Part shown: positions 1-36,470 of the stretch, in pieces
Layout: each line of letters begins with the position of its first letter
How positions within the stretch are numbered: position 1 is the stretch's first letter
NCBI RefSeq assembly: GCF_014495845.1
Contig: NZ_CP061080.1
Span: 1,229,001-1,293,000 of the forward strand
From: Aquibium microcysteis
GTDB lineage: Bacteria > Pseudomonadota > Alphaproteobacteria > Rhizobiales > Rhizobiaceae
DNA: 64,000 nt
Direction of reading: 5' to 3'
The notes under the pieces: model-generated
What the model was told of the DNA's origin: nothing
The model's database searches: none
What the model saw: the letters and a program-made list of their open reading frames with translations, nothing else
Position numbers and translations under genes: made by a program

Positions 1-54
1 TGGCGAGGCGCTCGAACTCTGATGCGGATCGCGGGGGGAACGAACGGGGGCGCG

Positions 55-459
55 ATGCGCGCGCTGCTGCTGGCCGGCGGGCTGGTCTGGTCGGCCTGCG
101 CTGCGGCGGCCGATTTTCCGGGCGGCGTCTACGCGCCGTCGCAGGAACTCTGCGCGGCCGGACTGGCCGGCGGCATCCAGTCCATTTTCGAACAGGGAGA
201 CACGGTCCTGACGGCGGCCGGCATCGAGGGGATCGAGTATCACTGCGATTTCGTCCAGGTCCTCGAAGGCCGGCGGACGCCCGGCTTCGTCGTCACCGCG
301 CTGTGCGAGGAGCCGGACTTCGCCTTCCCCGACCTGCTGGCCATCGTGCCGCGCGGAGAGGACGAGCTGCAGGTCACCTCGGTGCTGGATGCGGCGGGCG
401 GCGAGCCCTCCGCCAACAGCGGCACCTACCATCGGTGCAAGGGACTCGAACTGCCCTGA
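55..459 (+). CDS. small secreted cysteine-containing protein, unknown function
   Basis: I do not recognise a family. The 134-residue product begins with a clear signal peptide (hydrophobic run LLLAGGLVW, then small residues ending near AAAA before DFPGG), so it should be exported to the periplasm. The mature part has four cysteines (in QELCA, YHCDF, ALCEE and HRCKG), an even number that suggests two disulfide bonds. An in-frame ATG lies 33 bases earlier, but it would put a polar 11-residue extension before the signal peptide, and a G-rich ribosome-binding stretch sits just before position 55, so I chose 55. The gene lies 104 bases upstream of gatC on the same strand. Function unknown. Confidence 0.6.
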
Positions 460-563
460 GCCGCCGCTGCCGGCCGGTCGGGCGTTGCGCCCCGCCCGTC
501 CGACCGGTATAGCGCGGGACGGCCCCGCGCGAGCCACGGGCCGGTCACATCCCGGAGAAGCCC

Positions 564-851
564 ATGTCCGTCGATCTCGCCACCGTCAAGCGCGTCGCCC
601 ACCTCGCCCGCATCGCCGTCACCGAGGAGGATGCGGAACGGATGACCGGGGAGCTCAACGCCATCCTCGGCTTCGTCGAGCAGCTGGACGAGGTCGACGT
701 GTCCGGTGTCGAGCCGATGACGTCCGTGATCCCCATGCAGATGCGCAAGCGCGAGGACGTGGTGACGGACGGCGGCAAGGCCGCCGACGTCGTCGCCAAC
801 GCCCCGGCCTCGGCGGAGAATTTCTTCCTCGTGCCGAAGGTGGTGGAGTAG
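564..851 (+). CDS. gatC: Asp-tRNA(Asn)/Glu-tRNA(Gln) amidotransferase subunit C
   Basis: GatC is the small belt subunit of the GatCAB complex, which converts misacylated Glu-tRNA(Gln) and Asp-tRNA(Asn) to the correct aminoacyl-tRNAs in the cytoplasm. The 95-residue length is typical. The N-terminus [16 protein letters not shown] and the central [16 protein letters not shown] segment are classic GatC signatures, and the end ([11 protein letters not shown]) also matches the family. A GGAGA ribosome-binding site precedes the ATG. A GNAT gene follows after 6 bases and then gatA, so the three probably share one transcript. gatB is not in the window. Confidence 0.95.
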
Positions 852-857
852 CCCGCC

Positions 858-1328
858 ATGGCCGTGACGATCGCCGCCGAGACGCCGCTGCAGGACGACG
901 TGCGCCGGCTCGTGGCCGCGCTCAACGCCTATATGATGCCGCTCACTCCGCGCGAATTCCAGTTCCAGCTCACCGTCGAGCAGATGGCCGCGCCGTCGGT
1001 GACCTGCTTCGTGGCCCGCGACGAAGCGGGCAGGGCCGTCGGCATGGGATCGCTCAAGGACCATGGCGAGGGGCTGGGCGAGGTGAAGCGCATGTACACG
1101 CTTCCCGAAGTCCGGGGCCGGCGCATCGGCTCCCTGCTGCTGCAGCGCATCGAAGGCCTCGCCCGCGACAGGGGCCTGACGCTCCTGGTGCTGGAAACCG
1201 GCGAGGCCCCGGGCTTCGAGGAGGCCTGGCGCGTCTACGAGCGCGGCGGCTTCACGGTCTGCGGTGCCGTGCTCGACTATCCCGATTCAGGCTATTCGCG
1301 CTTTTACGAGAAGAAGATCCTTTCATGA
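858..1328 (+). CDS. GNAT-family N-acetyltransferase
   Basis: A 156-residue protein with one Gcn5-related acetyltransferase fold. The acetyl-CoA-binding motif A is visible as [20 protein letters not shown] (the Q/RxxGxG/A loop is RGRRIG), followed by the ERGGF segment typical of the fold's end. It lies between gatC and gatA: 6 bases after gatC, and its TGA overlaps the gatA ATG (ATGA), implying translational coupling. The substrate cannot be told from sequence. The position suggests shared expression with the amidotransferase, but a functional link is not shown. Confidence 0.85.
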
Positions 1329-2896
1329 CCGAGCTGACCAGACTGACGATCGCGCAGGCGCGCGACAAGCTTGCGGCCGGGGAGTTCAAGGCTGCCGAAC
1401 TCACCGACGCCTATCTGGCCGCGATCGACGCGGCCAACGGGACGCTGAACGCCTATGTGACGGTCACCCACGACAAGGCTCGCGCCATGGCCGCCGCGTC
1501 AGACGAGCGGCTCGCGAAGCGGCAGGGCGGCGCGCTCGAGGGCATTCCGCTCGGCATCAAGGACCTGTTCGGTACCGAAGGCGTCCACACCCAGGCCTGC
1601 AGCCATGTGCTCGACGGCTTCGAGCCGCGCTACGAATCGACCGTGACGGCCAATCTCTGGGCCGACGGCGCGGTGATGCTGGGCAAGCTCAACATGGACG
1701 AGTTCGCCATGGGCTCGTCCAACGAGACCTCCTACTACGGCCCCGTGGTCAATCCCTGGCGGCGCTCGCGCGAGATGATCGTGGCCGGCATGCCCGTCAC
1801 GCATGGCGGCGAGGGCGGCTTCGCCGGGGCCGGCAGCGGCGTGCGCACCGAGCGCGTGACCGACAATGTCGACCTCGTGCCCGGCGGATCATCGGGCGGA
1901 TCGGCAGCCGCCGTCTCGGCCTGGCTCTGCGCGGGCGCGACGGCGACCGACACCGGCGGCTCGATCCGCCAGCCGGCGGCCTTCACCGGCACGGTCGGGA
2001 TCAAGCCCACCTACGGCCGCTGCTCGCGCTGGGGCATCGTCGCCTTCGCCTCCTCGCTCGACCAGGCCGGCCCGATCGCCCGCGACGTCCGCGATGCCGC
2101 GATCCTGCTGAAGTCGATGGCCTCCGTCGACACGAAGGACACGACCTCCGTCGACCTGCCGGTTCCGGACTACGAAGCCTCGCTCGGCCGGTCGATTCGC
2201 GGAATGAAGATCGGCATCCCGCGCGAGTACCGGGTCGAGGGCATGCCGGACGAGATCGAGGCGCTGTGGCAGCAGGGCATCGACTGGATGCGCGACGCCG
2301 GCGCCGAGATCGTCGACATCTCGCTGCCGCACACGAAATACGCCCTGCCGGCCTACTACATCGTCGCGCCCGCCGAGGCCTCCTCCAACCTCGCCCGCTA
2401 CGACGGCGTCCGCTACGGCCTGCGGGTGCCCGGCAAGGACATCGTCGAGATGTACGAGAAGACCCGCGCCGAAGGTTTCGGCCGCGAGGTCAAGCGCCGC
2501 ATCATGATCGGCACCTACGTGCTCTCGGCCGGCTATTACGACGCCTATTATCTCAAGGCGCAGAAGGTGCGCACGCTGATCAAGAAGGATTTCGAGGACG
2601 TCTTCGCCGCCGGCGTCGACGCCATCCTGACCCCGGCCACGCCCTCGGCCGCCTTCGGCATCGCAGACCAGGACATGGCGAGCGATCCGGTGAAGATGTA
2701 CCTGAACGACATCTTCACGGTGACCGTGAACATGGCCGGTCTGCCCGGCATCGCCGTCCCCGCCGGCCTCGACGGCCGCGGCCTGCCGCTCGGCCTGCAG
2801 CTGATCGGCCGTCCCTTCGAGGAGGAGACGCTGTTCCGCACCGCGCACGTGATCGAGCAGGCGGCGGGGCGGTTCGAGCCGACGAAGTGGTGGTAG
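1325..2896 (+). CDS. gatA: Asp-tRNA(Asn)/Glu-tRNA(Gln) amidotransferase subunit A
   Basis: GatA is the amidase-signature subunit of GatCAB; it hydrolyses glutamine and passes ammonia to the GatB active site. The catalytic triad is visible: Lys79 in PLGIKDLFG, the cis-Ser in [12 protein letters not shown] (about Ser189) and the nucleophile in DTGGSIRQP (about Ser213). The start is the ATG overlapping the stop of the GNAT gene. The product is 523 residues, about 30 longer than I expect for this family. The excess sits at about residues 147-181, after NPWRR and before LVPGGSSGG, where most GatA proteins run almost directly from one motif to the other. The insert is in frame and the rest of the protein looks intact. 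Confidence 0.95.
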
Positions 2897-3006
2897 GGAG
2901 GTCATTCCCGGCGGCCGGAGCGCGGCCGGGGGCCTCGTACCGGGCGCGGTGAATGCCGCATTCATGGAGGCGCGAATCGGCCCCCCTGGATACAAACGCT
3001 GGTTCG

Positions 3007-3031
3007 CGCCCGATCCGCATCGGATCGGGCG
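3007..3031. terminator. hairpin between convergent gatA and higA, probable bidirectional terminator
   Basis: A perfect 11-bp stem (CGCCCGATCCG / CGGATCGGGCG) closes a 3-base CAT loop in the 222-bp gap between two convergent genes. There is no T-tract on either side, so intrinsic termination would be weak or assisted. A second small palindrome, TGAATGC-C-GCATTCA, lies at 2950-2964 in the same gap. I see no gene here. Confidence 0.5.
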
Positions 3032-3118
3032 TCAGCAGGGCTCAGAGGGTTGGACATCGATACTCTGGGACTCGCCGGAATCGCGCGCATCACAGGCGCA
3101 ATGCTTCCAGCTCCGGCG

Positions 3119-31709: not shown

Positions 31710-34700
31710 TCACCCGGCCGCGCCGGGCTCCGCGCCCTCGTCGCACTCGGGCGGCATCACGACGGGCCTCCCATCCGGCCCGGTCCCGACCTCGTAGAGA
31801 TAGCGCCAGGCATTGGGGCCGATGTCGGTCACCGTCATATCCTCGCCGAGCACCGCCCAGGAGTCCGGCAGCGCGAGCATGATCCGCAGCACCTTGCCGG
31901 TTGCGGCGTCCCAGAAGCGTGCGGTGTTGTCGTCTGACCCTGTGAGGATTTTCCTGCCGTCAGGCGCGAAGGCGACGGCGGCGACCGTGCCGCCATGTCC
32001 TTCGAAGCGTCTGATTTCGGTTCCTGTCGCGGCGTCCCAGAGGCGTGCGGTTTTGTCGGATGAGCCAGTGATGACGGTGCGTCCGTCGGGCGCGAAAGCG
32101 ACGGCGGTGACCGTGTTGCCATGCCCTTCGAAGCGTCTGATTTCGGTCTCTGTCGCGGCGTCCCAGAGGCGTGCGGTGTTGTCGGATGAGCCTGTGATGA
32201 CGGTGCTTCCGTCTGGCGCGAAGGCGACGGCGGTAACCGGGCTGCCAATCCCTTCGAAGCGTCTGATTTTGGTCCCTGTCGCGGCGTCCCAGAGGCGTGC
32301 GGTGTTGTCCCATGAGCCTGTGATGACGGTGCTTCCGTCCGGGGCGAAGGCGACGGCGGTGACCCGGCTGCCATGCCCTTGGAAGCGTCTGATTTCGGTC
32401 CCTGTCGCGGCGTCCCAGAGGCGTGCGGTTTTGTCCCAGGAGCCGGTAGTGACGGTCGTGCCGTCCGGCGCGAAGGCGACGGCGTTGACCAAGTTGCCAT
32501 CTCCTTGGAAGCGTCTGATTTCGGTTCCAGTTGCGGCGTCCCAGAGGCGTGCGGTTTTGTCCCAGGAGCCGGTGATGACAGTTCTGCCGTCCGGCGCGAA
32601 GGCGACGGCGGTGACCCTGGAGCCATGACCTTCGAAGCGTCTGATTTCGGTTCCAGTTGCGGCGTCCCAGAGGCGTGCGGTGTTGTCCCAGGAGCCGGTG
32701 ATGACGGTCTTTCCGTCTGGCGCGAAGGCGACGGCGGTGACCCTGGAGCCATGACCTTCGAAGCGTCTGATTTCGGTTCCAGTTGCCGCGTCCCAGAGGC
32801 GTGCGGTGTCGTCCCAGGAGCCTGTCATGACGGTTCTGCCGTCTGGCGCGAAGGCGACGGCGGTGACCCTGGAGCCATGACCTTCGAAGCGTCTGATTTC
32901 GGTTCCAGTTGCGGCGTCCCAGAGACGTGCGGTGTTGTCCCAGGAGCCGGTGATGATGGTGCTTCCGTTGGGCGCGAAGGCGACGGCGGTGACCGTGTTG
33001 CCATGACCTTCGAAGCGTCTGATTTCGGTTCCGGTCGCCGTGTCCCAGAGGCGTGTTGTGGTGCCCTCTGATCCTGTGAGGATTGCCCTGCCGTCTGGCG
33101 CGAAGGCGACGGCGGTGACCGGGTTGCCATGTCCTTCGAAGCGTCTGATTTCGGTACCTGTTGCGGCGTCCCAGAGGCGTGCGGTTTCGTCGTATGAGCC
33201 TGTGATGACGGTCTTTCCATCTGGCGCGAAGGCGACGGCGGTGACTGTGTTGCCATGTCCTTCGAAATGTCTGATCTCGGCTCCGGTTTTGGCGTCCCAG
33301 AGGCGTGCGGTGTCGTCGGATGAGCCTGTGATGACGGTCTTTCCATCTGGCGCGAAGGCGACGGCGGTGACTTTGTCGCCATGTCCTTCGAAGCGTTTGA
33401 TTTCGGTACCTGTTGCGGCGTCCCAGAGGCGTGCGGTTTCGTCGTATGAGCCTGTGATGACGGTCTTTCCATCTGGCGCGAAGGCGACGGCGGTGACTTT
33501 GTCGCCATGTCCTTCGAAGCGTTTGATTTCGGTACCTGTTGCGGCGTCCCAGAGGCGTGCGGTGTTGTCCCAGGAGCCGGTGATGACGGTCCTGCCGTCT
33601 GGCGCGAAGGCGACGGCGTTGACAGTGTTGCCATGTCCAAGCGTGATTCTCGACCTTCCCGGCCGAATCATTAGCCGCCCATTCGTTCGAAGCACGACCG
33701 CGCGAAAATCGAGGCCCGGTGAGGCCGAAACGTCCGACCGGTGCATCCGCACCGAGCCGAGTTCCCGCGGCGCGCCGGTGCAGGCGACGAGGCGGCAGCG
33801 GTCGAATTCGGCCTGCGCCAGCACGGCGCCGTCGAAGGAACAGTCTTCGAACGACGCGTCGGTGAAGCGCGCCTTGAAGAGATGCGCCCGGTCGAACCGC
33901 ACGCGCGAGAACGTCTGGCCGCCCGTCGGCGACACGAAATGCATTTCGCTGCAATCCAAATCGGAGAGGTTGGCGCCCGCGGCCATGTCGCGCCAGCCGA
34001 AGCGTCCGTTGATCCCCCGCCGCAGCCGTTCCGCGAACTGGCGTCGGGCGGCGGCATCGTCCGAGCAGAGCAGGGCGTGGGTTTCCGCGCGGAGCCGCTC
34101 GCCTGCGCTCTCGATCTCGGCCAGGTCGAGCAGGAAGCCTAAGGTTTCCTCGCTGACCGGCGCCATGTCGCCGAGGTCGGAATAGGCGCGGTTCATCAAG
34201 GTTTCGAACAGGCCGCGGGCGAGAAAATACTCGCCGAAGGAGGTGTGGACGAAGCGGAAGCCGTCGTCCTGCCCGCGCACCAGCAGGCTGGCATTGCGCA
34301 GTTCGAGATGCAGCAGGTGGCGCGCCTCCCGGCCGCTCGCCGCGATCAGCTTCAACCCCGGGTCGTCGATCGCATAGGCGTCGAACCACCGTTCCAGTTC
34401 GTCGATGCGGATGACGGGCCTCCGGTCCCGCCAGAGCTTCAGGGCGAGGCTCTGCAGCAGCCGCAGCCGGTCGTCGGGCGTGAGCAGCAGGCGCTTGTCC
34501 CGGTCGCGCTCCAGCGCGCTGTCGAAGAGATGGCGGTAGATACGGGCAGCGTTGATCGGCCGCCCCGCCGCGTGATCATCGAGAAGCGCCGGCGCGATCT
34601 CGGTGATGTAGCGCGTCATGATCGGCTTGGCGGCCAGATCGTCGAGATCGCCGATACGCGCGATCGCCGCGAAGGTCTGCGCGCCCCGCTTGGCACCGAG

Positions 34701-36440
34701 CGACCGCACGAAGAAGGAGCGGATCTGGTCGGGCGAAAACGGCGCCATGTACCAGACCGCGATGCGCGGCCGGGACAGCGTGCCGGGCCGGATGTCCTGG
34801 CGTGCGCGCCCCGAGAACGTGCTCTCCTCCTCGATATGCGACCGGAAGAAATGCGTCCGGCAGGTGACCAGCAGCCGCACCGGGCAGGCCGTCCAGTCGG
34901 GCGTGTCCCGGTGCTTGGCCATATCGGCATTCCAGGCCTCGCGCGGGACGATCTCCAGCAACTGGCGATAGATCTGGGACGCGCGCTCGTGCCCGATGCG
35001 GGTGCCGATCTCGTCTAGCCCGTCGAAAATGATCACGCAGGGCTCGCCGCGCAGCAGCGGCAGGATCGTCGCCGCGTCGATCCGGTCGCGATAGGCAGGC
35101 GCGAGCGAGCCGACGATCAGATCGACCAGCGAGGGCGGGTTCCTGTCGCCATAGGCGTCGTTCAACCGCCGGAAATCGAGATAGACCGGAAAAGGCGCCG
35201 CCGGATCCGCCTCGCGCCGCGCCAGGAGCCGCTGCGCGAGCAGCTGGCTGGTGGTCGTCTTGCCCGAGCCGAAGCTGCCGAGCAGCACCGACAGGCGGTT
35301 CGCGGTCGAGGGCGACGTCGCCCACTCCTCCAGCAGAGGCAGAATCGGCGTGGCACCGTCCGCGCCTTCCGCCATGGTGGCCTGCGGCTCCTCCACGGAC
35401 CCGTCGCGGACGTGCTCGTCGAACTCCCATCTGCTCGCCTGCCGCAGCAGGTCGCGCGGATCGGCCGGCCGGCCCTTGCGCTTGTCGGCCTGAGGTGTCG
35501 CTGTGGGATCGGTCGCCGGCGCAGCATCGCCCTCGTTCGGAGGAAGCGGCAGCGCCTTCAGGATTTCGTCGCGGACATGGCGGACGAACTCGTCGCGATC
35601 ATGCGCGTTCCCGACCGTGAACAGCTCGAGCCAGTTGGACCACCTCTCGTTCCACTGTTCCGGCAGGACAGGGCCTCTGGTGAAAAGCTCCAATCCATCC
35701 CGGCGGTGGCCGCTCGACTGGATGCGCAGCGTCCGGCCCGGTTTCAGCACACCGTCCACGATGAAGAAGGAGGCTTCCCGCCGGCAGGCCTTGCTCGCAT
35801 AGAACCTGTCCGACAGCAGGAAGATGCAGAAATCCGCCGTCTCGAACACCGGGTCCGTTGCGTGCTCGAAGCTCGGCACGGTCGCGGAAATGCTCTTGCG
35901 GTCGAAGAACAGCCTGACCTTGATCCGGCCATGCCAGGGGGGCGGCAGGGTGCCGAGAAGCCGATCCAGTTCGTCGACCAGATGGTCGATCGCCTTCTCG
36001 ATCTCCTTGCTCTCCCAGCCATGCGAGATCGCGACGACGTATTCCGGGATGCGCAGGACGCGCGGCTCCTGCGCGAAGCCGGGCGGCAGCTTCGTGTCCT
36101 CGTCCGTCGATTCCGTGACGGCCGCGCGGGCGGCGTCGCGGGCGGCACCCCCAAGCGAGCCCGGCTCGAACGTGACCGTGTAGCCCGCCTTGCCGGAGCG
36201 CAGCCGCACGCCATGTGCCTTCAGCGCGCCGTTGATCTGCACGATCCGCTGGCGCAGCGCCGCAGCCTCCGGCAGCCCGCCTTCGCCCGCCTGCAGCCGC
36301 CCATGCACGTCCGCCTTCGCGGCGAACAGATCGTCGCCATCGCCGGGATTCGCGTGCGCGGCCACCGCGTCGTAGAGCTTCAGCGGCGCCGGCCCGAGGA
36401 GCGGCTCGATCAGGCTGCGCAGGCGGGCGAGGACGGTCAT
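31710..36440 (-). CDS. giant STAND protein: TIR-like domain, NACHT ATPase, pentapeptide-like stretch and 14 WD40 repeats
   Basis: A 1576-residue single polypeptide. Residues 1-95 form a helical N-terminal domain of unknown type. About 128-250 is TIR-like: YVVAISHGWES, KVRLFFDRKS, ADFCIFLLSDRFYASKACRRE, where S-x-x-C-x-x-E fits the catalytic-glutamate motif of TIR NADases. About 380-560 is a NACHT P-loop ATPase with Walker A LLGSFGSGKTTTSQLL and Walker B VIIFDGLDEIG. Helical STAND segments follow to about 815, then FxxxxF-type pentapeptide-like residues to about 890. Residues 935-1522 are 14 WD40 repeats of 42 residues, enough for two seven-bladed propellers. GGAG stands 7 bases before the ATG. 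Expected logic: propellers sense a ligand, NACHT oligomerises, TIR depletes NAD or signals. Known STAND/Avs and TIR defence proteins support this; the trigger is unknown. Confidence 0.9.
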   Translation of the reverse strand: MTVLARLRSLIEPLLGPAPLKLYDAVAAHANPGDGDDLFAAKADVHGRLQAGEGGLPEAAALRQRIVQINGALKAHGVRLRSGKAGYTVTFEPGSLGGAARDAARAAVTESTDEDTKLPPGFAQEPRVLRIPEYVVAISHGWESKEIEKAIDHLVDELDRLLGTLPPPWHGRIKVRLFFDRKSISATVPSFEHATDPVFETADFCIFLLSDRFYASKACRREASFFIVDGVLKPGRTLRIQSSGHRRDGLELFTRGPVLPEQWNERWSNWLELFTVGNAHDRDEFVRHVRDEILKALPLPPNEGDAAPATDPTATPQADKRKGRPADPRDLLRQASRWEFDEHVRDGSVEEPQATMAEGADGATPILPLLEEWATSPSTANRLSVLLGSFGSGKTTTSQLLAQRLLARREADPAAPFPVYLDFRRLNDAYGDRNPPSLVDLIVGSLAPAYRDRIDAATILPLLRGEPCVIIFDGLDEIGTRIGHERASQIYRQLLEIVPREAWNADMAKHRDTPDWTACPVRLLVTCRTHFFRSHIEEESTFSGRARQDIRPGTLSRPRIAVWYMAPFSPDQIRSFFVRSLGAKRGAQTFAAIARIGDLDDLAAKPIMTRYITEIAPALLDDHAAGRPINAARIYRHLFDSALERDRDKRLLLTPDDRLRLLQSLALKLWRDRRPVIRIDELERWFDAYAIDDPGLKLIAASGREARHLLHLELRNASLLVRGQDDGFRFVHTSFGEYFLARGLFETLMNRAYSDLGDMAPVSEETLGFLLDLAEIESAGERLRAETHALLCSDDAAARRQFAERLRRGINGRFGWRDMAAGANLSDLDCSEMHFVSPTGGQTFSRVRFDRAHLFKARFTDASFEDCSFDGAVLAQAEFDRCRLVACTGAPRELGSVRMHRSDVSASPGLDFRAVVLRTNGRLMIRPGRSRITLGHGNTVNAVAFAPDGRTVITGSWDNTARLWDAATGTEIKRFEGHGDKVTAVAFAPDGKTVITGSYDETARLWDAATGTEIKRFEGHGDKVTAVAFAPDGKTVITGSSDDTARLWDAKTGAEIRHFEGHGNTVTAVAFAPDGKTVITGSYDETARLWDAATGTEIRRFEGHGNPVTAVAFAPDGRAILTGSEGTTTRLWDTATGTEIRRFEGHGNTVTAVAFAPNGSTIITGSWDNTARLWDAATGTEIRRFEGHGSRVTAVAFAPDGRTVMTGSWDDTARLWDAATGTEIRRFEGHGSRVTAVAFAPDGKTVITGSWDNTARLWDAATGTEIRRFEGHGSRVTAVAFAPDGRTVITGSWDKTARLWDAATGTEIRRFQGDGNLVNAVAFAPDGTTVTTGSWDKTARLWDAATGTEIRRFQGHGSRVTAVAFAPDGSTVITGSWDNTARLWDAATGTKIRRFEGIGSPVTAVAFAPDGSTVITGSSDNTARLWDAATETEIRRFEGHGNTVTAVAFAPDGRTVITGSSDKTARLWDAATGTEIRRFEGHGGTVAAVAFAPDGRKILTGSDDNTARFWDAATGKVLRIMLALPDSWAVLGEDMTVTDIGPNAWRYLYEVGTGPDGRPVVMPPECDEGAEPGAAG
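31875..33638 (-). repeat. 14 tandem 126-bp repeats encoding WD40 blades
   Basis: From the first GHG codon at 33638 to the end of the fourteenth unit at 31875 is 1764 bp, exactly 14 times 126, so no unit has gained or lost a codon. Units share a nearly fixed core (AVAFAPDG, TGS, TARLWDAATGTEI, RRFE). Differences cluster after GHG (NT, DK, SR, NP), after DG, and in the S-W/Y/S-D-N/E/K/D step. Nearly identical DNA over many units points to recent duplication or gene conversion. Confidence 0.95.
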
Positions 36441-36470
36441 GGCGGATCTCCTTGCGTCAAGAAGATCACG

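What the first reader, a model, noticed from the sequence alone, without database searches (positions are those of the whole stretch)
31710..36440. Single-gene TIR-NACHT-WD40 protein, candidate anti-phage or self/non-self system
One gene encodes a TIR-like domain with an S-x-x-C-x-x-E motif, a NACHT ATPase with intact Walker A and B, and two propellers' worth of WD40 repeats. Parallels are the STAND/Avs and TIR defence proteins and fungal HNWD incompatibility genes. No helper genes are attached, so sensing, oligomerisation and effector may be all in one chain.
Basis: partly seen in the sequence, partly recalled or inferred. Interest (0 to 1): 0.85.

Follow-up and report, generated by a model that had tools for sequence, protein, structure and literature searches.

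The report
Bacterial TIR-NACHT-WD40 immune-receptor-like protein
A single bacterial gene encodes a protein laid out like an NLR-type immune receptor: a TIR domain of the NAD-cutting kind, a NACHT switch and fourteen closely similar WD40 blades, much like fungal self/non-self recognition proteins; it is probably a one-gene defence receptor, but no activity has been tested.

Summary
One intact gene (31710-36440, minus strand, 1,576 aa) encodes a predicted winged-helix-like N-terminus, a TIR domain, a NACHT ATPase with intact Walker A and B motifs, a short pentapeptide element, and 14 WD40 blades of exactly 42 aa. Structure prediction supports the TIR fold. S216, C219 and E222 of the SxxCxxE motif are invariant in 9 of 9 aligned family members, and E222 aligns with the corresponding Glu of solved TIRs. 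NACHT passes Pfam's cut-off. By Foldseek the C-terminal part is closest to a solved highly repetitive WD40 protein, then Apaf-1. The gene stands alone and was not found in four congeners; in one of them other genes lie between the same two neighbours. Relatives are rare and scattered, and the NACHT-pentapeptide-WD40 scaffold also carries other N-terminal domains (nucleoside phosphorylase, Mrr nuclease, EAL-like). Blades are on average 80% identical, most alike when near each other, and vary mostly at positions selected in fungal HNWD proteins, but ordinary WD40 proteins share that site preference. Best reading: an autoinhibited one-chain NLR-like defence receptor with a TIR NADase effector. 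Activity, trigger and anti-phage role are untested. New variant of a known kind.

The parts
31710..36440 (-). whole coding sequence, 1,576 aa TIR-NACHT-pentapeptide-WD40 protein
   Evidence: relatives
36448..36453 (-). likely ribosome-binding site AAGGAG
   Evidence: read
36156..36440 (-). N-terminal region (residues 1-95), predicted winged-helix-like; sits where the NNH6 domain sits in relatives L013 and L024, homology to NNH6 not shown
35547..36050 (-). TIR domain (residues 131-298)
35775..35795 (-). S216-K-A-C219-R-R-E222 motif with the putative catalytic Glu222 (35775-35777)
34941..35297 (-). NACHT core (residues 382-500); Walker A 35253-35279, Walker B 35010-35033
33936..34940 (-). helical region after the NACHT core (residues 501-835, limits approximate), conserved in relatives
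33786..33911 (-). pentapeptide-repeat element (residues 844-885)
   Evidence: PF00805 20.5-21.8 bits, cut-off 20.2; short strands in the model
31890..33653 (-). 14 WD40 blades, each 42 aa (residues 930-1517)
31710..31889 (-). C-terminal tail (residues 1518-1576 and stop) with a W...WRYL-like motif seen by eye also at the C-termini of L012, L016, L022 and L088
31647..36544 (.). block absent from congener G680, in which another 7.5 kb block lies between the same dprA and amidase neighbours

Best explanation
A one-chain NLR-like (STAND) defence receptor. At rest, the double WD40 propeller is thought to fold back on an ADP-bound NACHT and hold the protein monomeric, as the two propellers of Apaf-1 do. 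A ligand, most likely a protein of an invading phage or other element, binds the top faces of the propellers. This allows nucleotide exchange and ring-like oligomerisation through NACHT, which brings TIR domains together so that Glu222 and a neighbouring TIR complete an NADase site. NAD+ is depleted and the infected cell stops growing or dies. Shown here by computation: domain order, TIR fold, conservation and alignment position of Glu222, intact Walker motifs, the 14-blade array, the lone-gene arrangement, patchy presence. Inferred from families: autoinhibition, oligomerisation, NADase activity, invader sensing, cell death.
For: TIR fold (AbTir 7uxu TMt 0.73). Glu222 invariant in 9 of 9, aligned with the Glu of PdTIR 3h16 (E = 2e-4) and of plant AtTIR 3jrn (weak, E = 0.15). 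NACHT with Walker A and B. C-terminal part closest by Foldseek to 2ymu and then to full-length Apaf-1 over 1,286 columns. Exchange of the N-terminal domain on a kept NACHT-pentapeptide-WD40 scaffold, as in fungal NLRs (PMC4986451, passages). Not found in 4 of 4 congeners (one of them only 69% complete); TIR-to-NACHT relatives in 1 of 296 other genomes of its order and 2 of 384 of its class, the patchiness typical of defence genes. No obvious neighbour that could receive a TIR-made signal.
Against: No activity data. TIR_2 score below the gathering cut-off in the window protein. PADLOC gave only HEAT-ARM_XIII, on the WD40 blades, and a marginal mad8 on the P-loop. No defence gene was recognised among the nine neighbouring ORFs scanned, with Pfam only; eight gave housekeeping or metabolic families, one nothing. 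No match in phage records and none among the 600 viral-contig stretches tested. Model 2 has a low pTM (0.42), so the placing of the propellers on NACHT is not predicted reliably.
Confidence: 0.6

Rival explanations
1. Same receptor logic, but the TIR makes a nucleotide second messenger for an effector encoded elsewhere, or acts only as an assembly scaffold.
For: Bacterial and plant TIRs can signal through ADP-ribose derivatives (PMC13174449, passages). Position 218 is Ala in the window protein, where plant AtTIR has Trp in SSWCLDE (alignment).
Against: No obvious partner gene sits beside the gene or, by eye, among the ORFs listed around L016. The Glu is kept in 9 of 9, which argues against a purely structural role.
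Confidence: 0.2
2. A non-immune STAND regulator (stress response, development, kin recognition or control of gene transfer agents) in which the N-terminal winged-helix-like region or the TIR gives a regulatory output.
For: N-terminal winged-helix-like model. Chromosomal site among housekeeping genes. A Caulobacter NLR-like system controls gene transfer agents (PMC13236601, search listing and start of abstract only).
Against: Patchy presence and exchange of N-terminal domains, including nucleases, look like conflict systems rather than housekeeping regulators.
Confidence: 0.17
3. A decaying or silent acquired gene without present function.
For: Not found in the four other genomes of the genus searched. 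No sigma-70-like promoter found, which says little for an alphaproteobacterium.
Against: 4.7 kb open frame, all catalytic motifs intact, constraint at the less variable blade positions (dN/dS-like ratio about 0.2).
Confidence: 0.03

Closest known systems
Fungal HNWD proteins HET-D / HET-E / HET-R (Podospora anserina)
   Same: N-terminal TIR-related effector, NACHT, C-terminal 42-aa WD40 units with high internal identity; modelled as two seven-bladed propellers; variation in blades at top-face positions (PMC12222747, PMC1805685, passages read)
   Different: Here a canonical TIR rather than a HET domain, a pentapeptide element between NACHT and WD40, 14 recognisable blades rather than 10-12 plus three cryptic ones, somewhat lower identity between blades, bacterial host; no known partner like HET-C; no allele series available
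Apaf-1 (apoptosome)
   Same: STAND ATPase followed by two WD40 propellers; second-best Foldseek entry over 1,286 columns
   Different: NB-ARC instead of NACHT, CARD instead of TIR, no pentapeptide element (Apaf-1 parts from PMC13174449 passages and recall); 16-17% identity and a poor global superposition
Bacterial NACHT (bNACHT) and Avs anti-phage proteins
   Same: Effector - NACHT/STAND - sensor layout in one chain (PMC12169576, PMC10907252, passages)
   Different: PADLOC gave no Avs match; sensor is WD40; bNACHT25 has a nuclease effector (PMC12169576)
TIR NADases (AbTir, PdTIR, plant TIR)
   Same: Fold and Glu position
   Different: Activity untested; the Trp before the Cys of plant TIR is Ala in the window protein
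Human TEP1 / NWD1 (DUF4062 TIR-like - NACHT - WD40)
   Same: TIR-like domain, NACHT and, in several, WD40 in one chain, proposed activation by oligomerisation (PMC13174449, passages)
   Different: DUF4062 is another TIR-like family; it was not among the Pfam hits of residues 1-930
2ymu, solved highly repetitive WD40 protein
   Same: Best match of the blade array: 2.1e-129 by sequence, rank 1 by Foldseek
   Different: The solved 577-residue chain is a WD40 protein only

Membership tests
TIR domain superfamily | flavodoxin-like TIR fold | tested here: met
   8 of 9 family members match TIR_2, the window protein itself below the cut-off
TIR NADase | catalytic Glu at the TIR active-site position | tested here: met
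   E222 invariant 9 of 9 and aligned with the Glu of PdTIR and AtTIR; by alignment only, coordinates could not be inspected
TIR NADase | NAD+ cleavage | not testable with these tools
   needs an enzyme assay
NACHT STAND NTPases / bNACHT | NACHT domain with Walker A and B | tested here: met
   PF05729 36.8 bits against a cut-off of 26.7; motifs
bNACHT anti-phage proteins | defence against phage | not testable with these tools
   no assay
Avs (antiviral STAND) | match to an Avs model | tested here: not met
   PADLOC scan gave only HEAT-ARM_XIII (on WD40) and a marginal mad8; that PADLOC holds Avs models is recalled
HNWD (fungal incompatibility NLRs) | HET effector domain | tested here: not met
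   no HET match in Pfam at E up to 5 in residues 1-930; TIR instead
HNWD (fungal incompatibility NLRs) | high internal conservation of 42-aa WD40 units (over 80% to 100% in HNWD, PMC12222747) | tested here: inconclusive
   same unit length; mean 80% aa identity, but pairs range from 67% to 95%
HNWD (fungal incompatibility NLRs) | diversifying selection at top-face codons | tested here: inconclusive
   three of the four strongly selected HNWD codons are the three most variable positions here and the pooled dN/dS-like ratio over the four is 1.4-1.5, but 9 of 9 WD40 ORFs without an upstream P-loop show the same site preference, the fourth site ranks 7th, and no likelihood test was run
HNWD (fungal incompatibility NLRs) | repeat-number polymorphism between strains | not tested
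   no second strain of this species held; relatives differ in blade number but many are draft assemblies cut at contig ends

The most novel reading that the evidence does not exclude
This gene and its relatives are a bacterial counterpart of the fungal HNWD recognition genes: a one-gene NADase receptor whose specificity is remade by shuffling and homogenising closely similar WD40 blades, so that strains carry different alleles for invader or self/non-self recognition, with the killing domain exchanged between TIR, phosphorylase, nuclease and other types on one scaffold.
Probability: 0.25. Interest if true: 0.85.

Novelty: new variant of a known kind. Interest (0 to 1): 0.5.

Why it matters
Receptors built from TIR-like, NACHT and WD40 parts are used by fungi for self/non-self recognition and occur in animals. 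A compact bacterial version in one gene, with a blade array that looks remade by local exchange and with exchangeable N-terminal domains, would let the activation route of such receptors and the origin of blade shuffling be tested in ordinary laboratory bacteria.

Tried and rejected
NNH6 for the N-terminus: relatives L013 and L024 have a clear NNH6 there, but profile-profile comparison with the window family gave only 11% probability, so the homology is not claimed.

Variable blade sites as proof of diversifying selection: rejected as proof. The match with HNWD sites is strong in three genes, but 9 of 9 WD40 ORFs without a P-loop before the blades show it as well (four-site p at most 0.005 each). 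What does separate the groups is high internal identity: mean blade identity of at least 0.6 in 11 of 13 ORFs with a P-loop before the blades against 0 of 9 without (Fisher 2.2e-4). Checked again on longer stretches: of the nine, one (L100/L085) has a P-loop-like motif after its blades and one (L091) runs off its contig, leaving 0 of 7 clean ones; Fisher values for 0 of 6 and 0 of 8 are 1.0e-3 and 2.2e-4. The P-loop set was fetched by likeness to this gene, so it is not an independent sample. Rows dropped before that count: three fragments of the window gene (L043, L060, L063), one duplicate (L085), and L088, a contig-start fragment with identity 0.84 and no P-loop in view.

Horizontal gain from composition: the WD40 part has lower GC3 (0.73) than the rest of the gene (0.88) and eight neighbours (0.86-0.92), but 14 copies of one unit count as about one sample; no conclusion drawn. 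Mobile-element ends: no direct or inverted match of 8-12 bases between the two edge stretches examined. Diversity-generating retroelement: three reverse-transcriptase domains occur in the genome, the nearest (with a stop inside) about 0.14 Mb away; none at this locus. Phage or plasmid carriage: no phage record; one record in the plasmid set matched 38% of the query, an 11.85 Mb record of Nonomuraea; viral contigs none. NCBIfam HalA matched the pentapeptide stretch at 25 bits against a cut-off of 250; not taken as membership.

Geometry of E222 in the model and closure of the two propellers could not be inspected, because no model coordinates were in the Python box.

Full report
Where it is. The window is bases 1,229,001-1,293,000 of a 6.1 Mb single-contig genome. 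The gene runs from ATG at 36440 to the stop ending at 31710 on the minus strand, 1,576 aa, with AAGGAG 7 bases upstream. It lies between dprA, whose coding end is 75 bp away, and an amidase gene, whose coding end is 138 bp from the ATG. Nine neighbouring window ORFs were scanned with Pfam: eight gave ordinary families (dihydroorotase-like, plsY, dprA, amidase, two SDRs, polysaccharide deacetylase, ABC permease) and one gave nothing. They were not scanned with PADLOC.

Anatomy. Residues 1-95 are predicted as a winged-helix-like unit, H-H-E-H-H-E-E, pLDDT 79-94 over 1-90. Residues 131-298 form the TIR domain: strand/helix alternation with pLDDT about 90 and one dip to 71 at 181-190. About 30 of the 50 Foldseek entries listed, and the first six, contain TIR domains (plant RPPT-TIR, TLR1, MAL, SPARTA, MyD88, AbTir with TMt 0.73); no E-value was below 0.001, and flavodoxin-like enzymes such as quinone reductase 2 are interspersed. 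Pfam TIR_2 is weak in the window protein but is found in 8 of 9 aligned family members. In that alignment of 9, invariant residues include S139, H140, D180, S216, C219 and E222. The family profile finds PdTIR 3h16 with E = 2e-4; there E222 aligns with the Glu of WPQKE. In AtTIR 3jrn (E = 0.15, weak) it aligns with the Glu of WCLDE. That a conserved Glu is the catalytic residue of TIR NADases is stated in PMC13174449 (passages). NACHT scores 36.8 bits against a cut-off of 26.7, with Walker A 388-396 and Walker B 470-477. A short pentapeptide element follows at about 844-885. Then come 14 WD40 units of 42 aa at 930-1517 and a tail with a W...WRYL-like motif that, by eye, also closes L012, L016, L022 and L088. 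Model 2 (NACHT to the end) has mean pLDDT 72.8 but pTM 0.42. Its best Foldseek entries are 2ymu, a solved highly repetitive propeller, and Apaf-1 over 1,286 columns, both with poor global superposition (rmsd above 23); a single-propeller match, ODA16, superposes well (rmsd 2.9). So the blades are credible, and two seven-bladed propellers is the natural reading of 14 units, but their closure and their placing on NACHT were not seen.

Relatives. In 297 genomes of the order (own included) one other genome has a relative 45% identical over residues 13-913; two others give weak partial matches. In 385 genomes of the class (own included; query residues 1-613) two others match across TIR and NACHT, one in the NACHT part only, and two weakly. 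None of 4 congeners has a match; one of them is only 69% complete. In 398 genomes of the phylum (own included), 12 others match, all only from profile position 360 onward, that is without the TIR. A scan of GTDB contigs gave 28 loci. Eight carry the TIR part (L015, L016, L017, L018, L019, L020, L021, L023), in records titled as Alpha- or Gammaproteobacteria or as groups within them; L022 is probably the other end of the gene in L023. Of the other 19, ten were scanned with Pfam: eight carry an Mrr-type nuclease domain before the NACHT (L025-L030, L034, L035; most with a ParA/CbiA-like match, often weak, absent in L030), L024 has NNH6 plus a clear TIR, and L036 showed no effector. Elsewhere the same scaffold carries NNH6 plus a nucleoside phosphorylase (L013) and an EAL-like domain below Pfam's cut-off (L073). 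The TIR and NACHT part was not found in phage records or among 600 viral-contig stretches tested; in the plasmid set only an 11.85 Mb Nonomuraea record matched, over 38% of the query.

Locus. In congener G680 the dprA and amidase proteins are 97% and 91% identical to those of the window. DNA likeness stops at window 31646 and 36545; between them G680 has a different 7.5 kb block with LysR-, SDR- and MarR-like genes among others (named by eye). Parts of that block occur elsewhere in the window's own genome. The gene is therefore the only gene in a block present in one species and replaced in another, without recognisable element ends.

The blade array. Mean identity among blades is 80% (aa, range 67-95%) and 84% (nt). 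Neighbouring blades are more alike than distant ones (r = -0.38; 48 of 20,000 permutations as low; third positions alone r = -0.35, 46 of 20,000; without the two end blades 190 and 108 of 20,000), as unequal exchange between neighbours would give. The most variable positions are 10, 30 and 28, then 21, 9 and 24. In HNWD, codons 7, 9, 25 and 27 are under strong positive selection, each pair flanking a conserved residue (PMC1805685, passages). Aligned on those conserved residues they are positions 10, 12, 28 and 30 here, so three of the four are the top three and the fourth ranks 7th. Random sets of four reach the same mean entropy in 8 of 50,000 draws for the window, 295 for G620 and 151 for G037. 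Against a full match: position 30 ranks only 29th in G620 and 17th in G037, and positions 8 and 37 of the wider HNWD set of seven hardly vary in the window. Pooled dN/dS-like ratios are 1.4-1.5 at the four positions and 0.15-0.21 at the 34 positions left after setting aside the seven HNWD positions and position 21; single positions are mixed (0.77 at position 10, 1.0 at 28, 5.6 at 30, no silent change at 12). Control: of WD40 ORFs with at least 5 blades held here, 9 of 9 without a P-loop before the blades show the same site preference, so the preference alone is a property of propellers. High internal identity is more specific: at least 0.6 in 11 of 13 ORFs with a P-loop before the blades against 0 of 9 without, or 0 of 7 after dropping one with a P-loop-like motif after its blades and one cut by its contig end; the sampling caveat is given under Tried and rejected.

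Mechanism. The layout is effector, switch, sensor. Apaf-1 shows how two propellers can hold a STAND ATPase closed; passages of PMC13174449 give that account and speculate the same route for TEP1. For TIR NADases, oligomerisation completes the active site (same source). I therefore favour ligand binding to the propellers, nucleotide exchange, NACHT-driven assembly, TIR activation and NAD+ loss. Domain architecture, fold, alignment position of the Glu and motifs are shown by computation; all steps of action are inferred. An invader as ligand is inferred from patchy presence and exchanged N-terminal domains.

Known or new. The kind is known: bacterial STAND receptors and fungal NLRs. Of the eight text searches of the held library made here, the seven that looked for NACHT, WD40 or TIR receptors in or beyond bacteria (all but 69, on HNWD) did not list, by title and start of abstract, a characterised bacterial TIR-NACHT-pentapeptide-WD40 protein; 'TIR-NACHT' had 0 occurrences in the 15 papers listed. 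Supplements were not read and most subscription papers are not in that library, so this is no proof of absence. The systematic study of prokaryotic highly repetitive WD40 proteins (PMC5587647, passages) has no occurrence of NACHT or TIR in its main text. I file it as a new variant of a known kind.

Noticed in passing
L013 (G482), ORF 3-3065 minus: NNH6 - nucleoside phosphorylase - NACHT - pentapeptide - WD40 protein (cut at the contig end): the same scaffold with another N-terminal enzyme, like fungal PNP_UDP-NACHT proteins.
   Followed up: partly
L025-L030, L034, L035: Mrr-type nuclease, mostly with a ParA/CbiA-like part, in front of related NACHT modules; L026, L029, L030 and L034 continue into WD40 arrays.
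   Followed up: partly
L073 1-1500: EAL-like domain (E = 4.9e-6, below Pfam's cut-off) in front of NACHT - pentapeptide - WD40; possibly a nucleotide-signalling or degenerate effector.
   Followed up: no
L107 from 343 (L087 from 19), 1,056-aa frame: TIR (TIR_2 and ThsB_TIR matches) followed by 14 WD40 blades with no P-loop motif anywhere in the frame: a possible minimal receptor without the switch.
   Followed up: partly
L104 from 2783, 1,574-aa frame (G443): WD40 blades first and a P-loop-like motif (residue 1262) after them: the order of sensor and possible NTPase is reversed.
   Followed up: no
L067 2388-5654 (own genome, contig 1 near 5.49 Mb): A second WD40 protein in the same genome with a caspase domain (Peptidase_C14, E = 3.3e-14).
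   Followed up: partly
window 31710-33650: The WD40 half of the gene has markedly lower GC3 (0.73) than its other half (0.88) and its neighbours.
   Followed up: partly
L022/L023 and L011/L088: In draft genomes the gene tends to break at contig ends or show few blades, so blade numbers in such assemblies may be too low.
   Followed up: no
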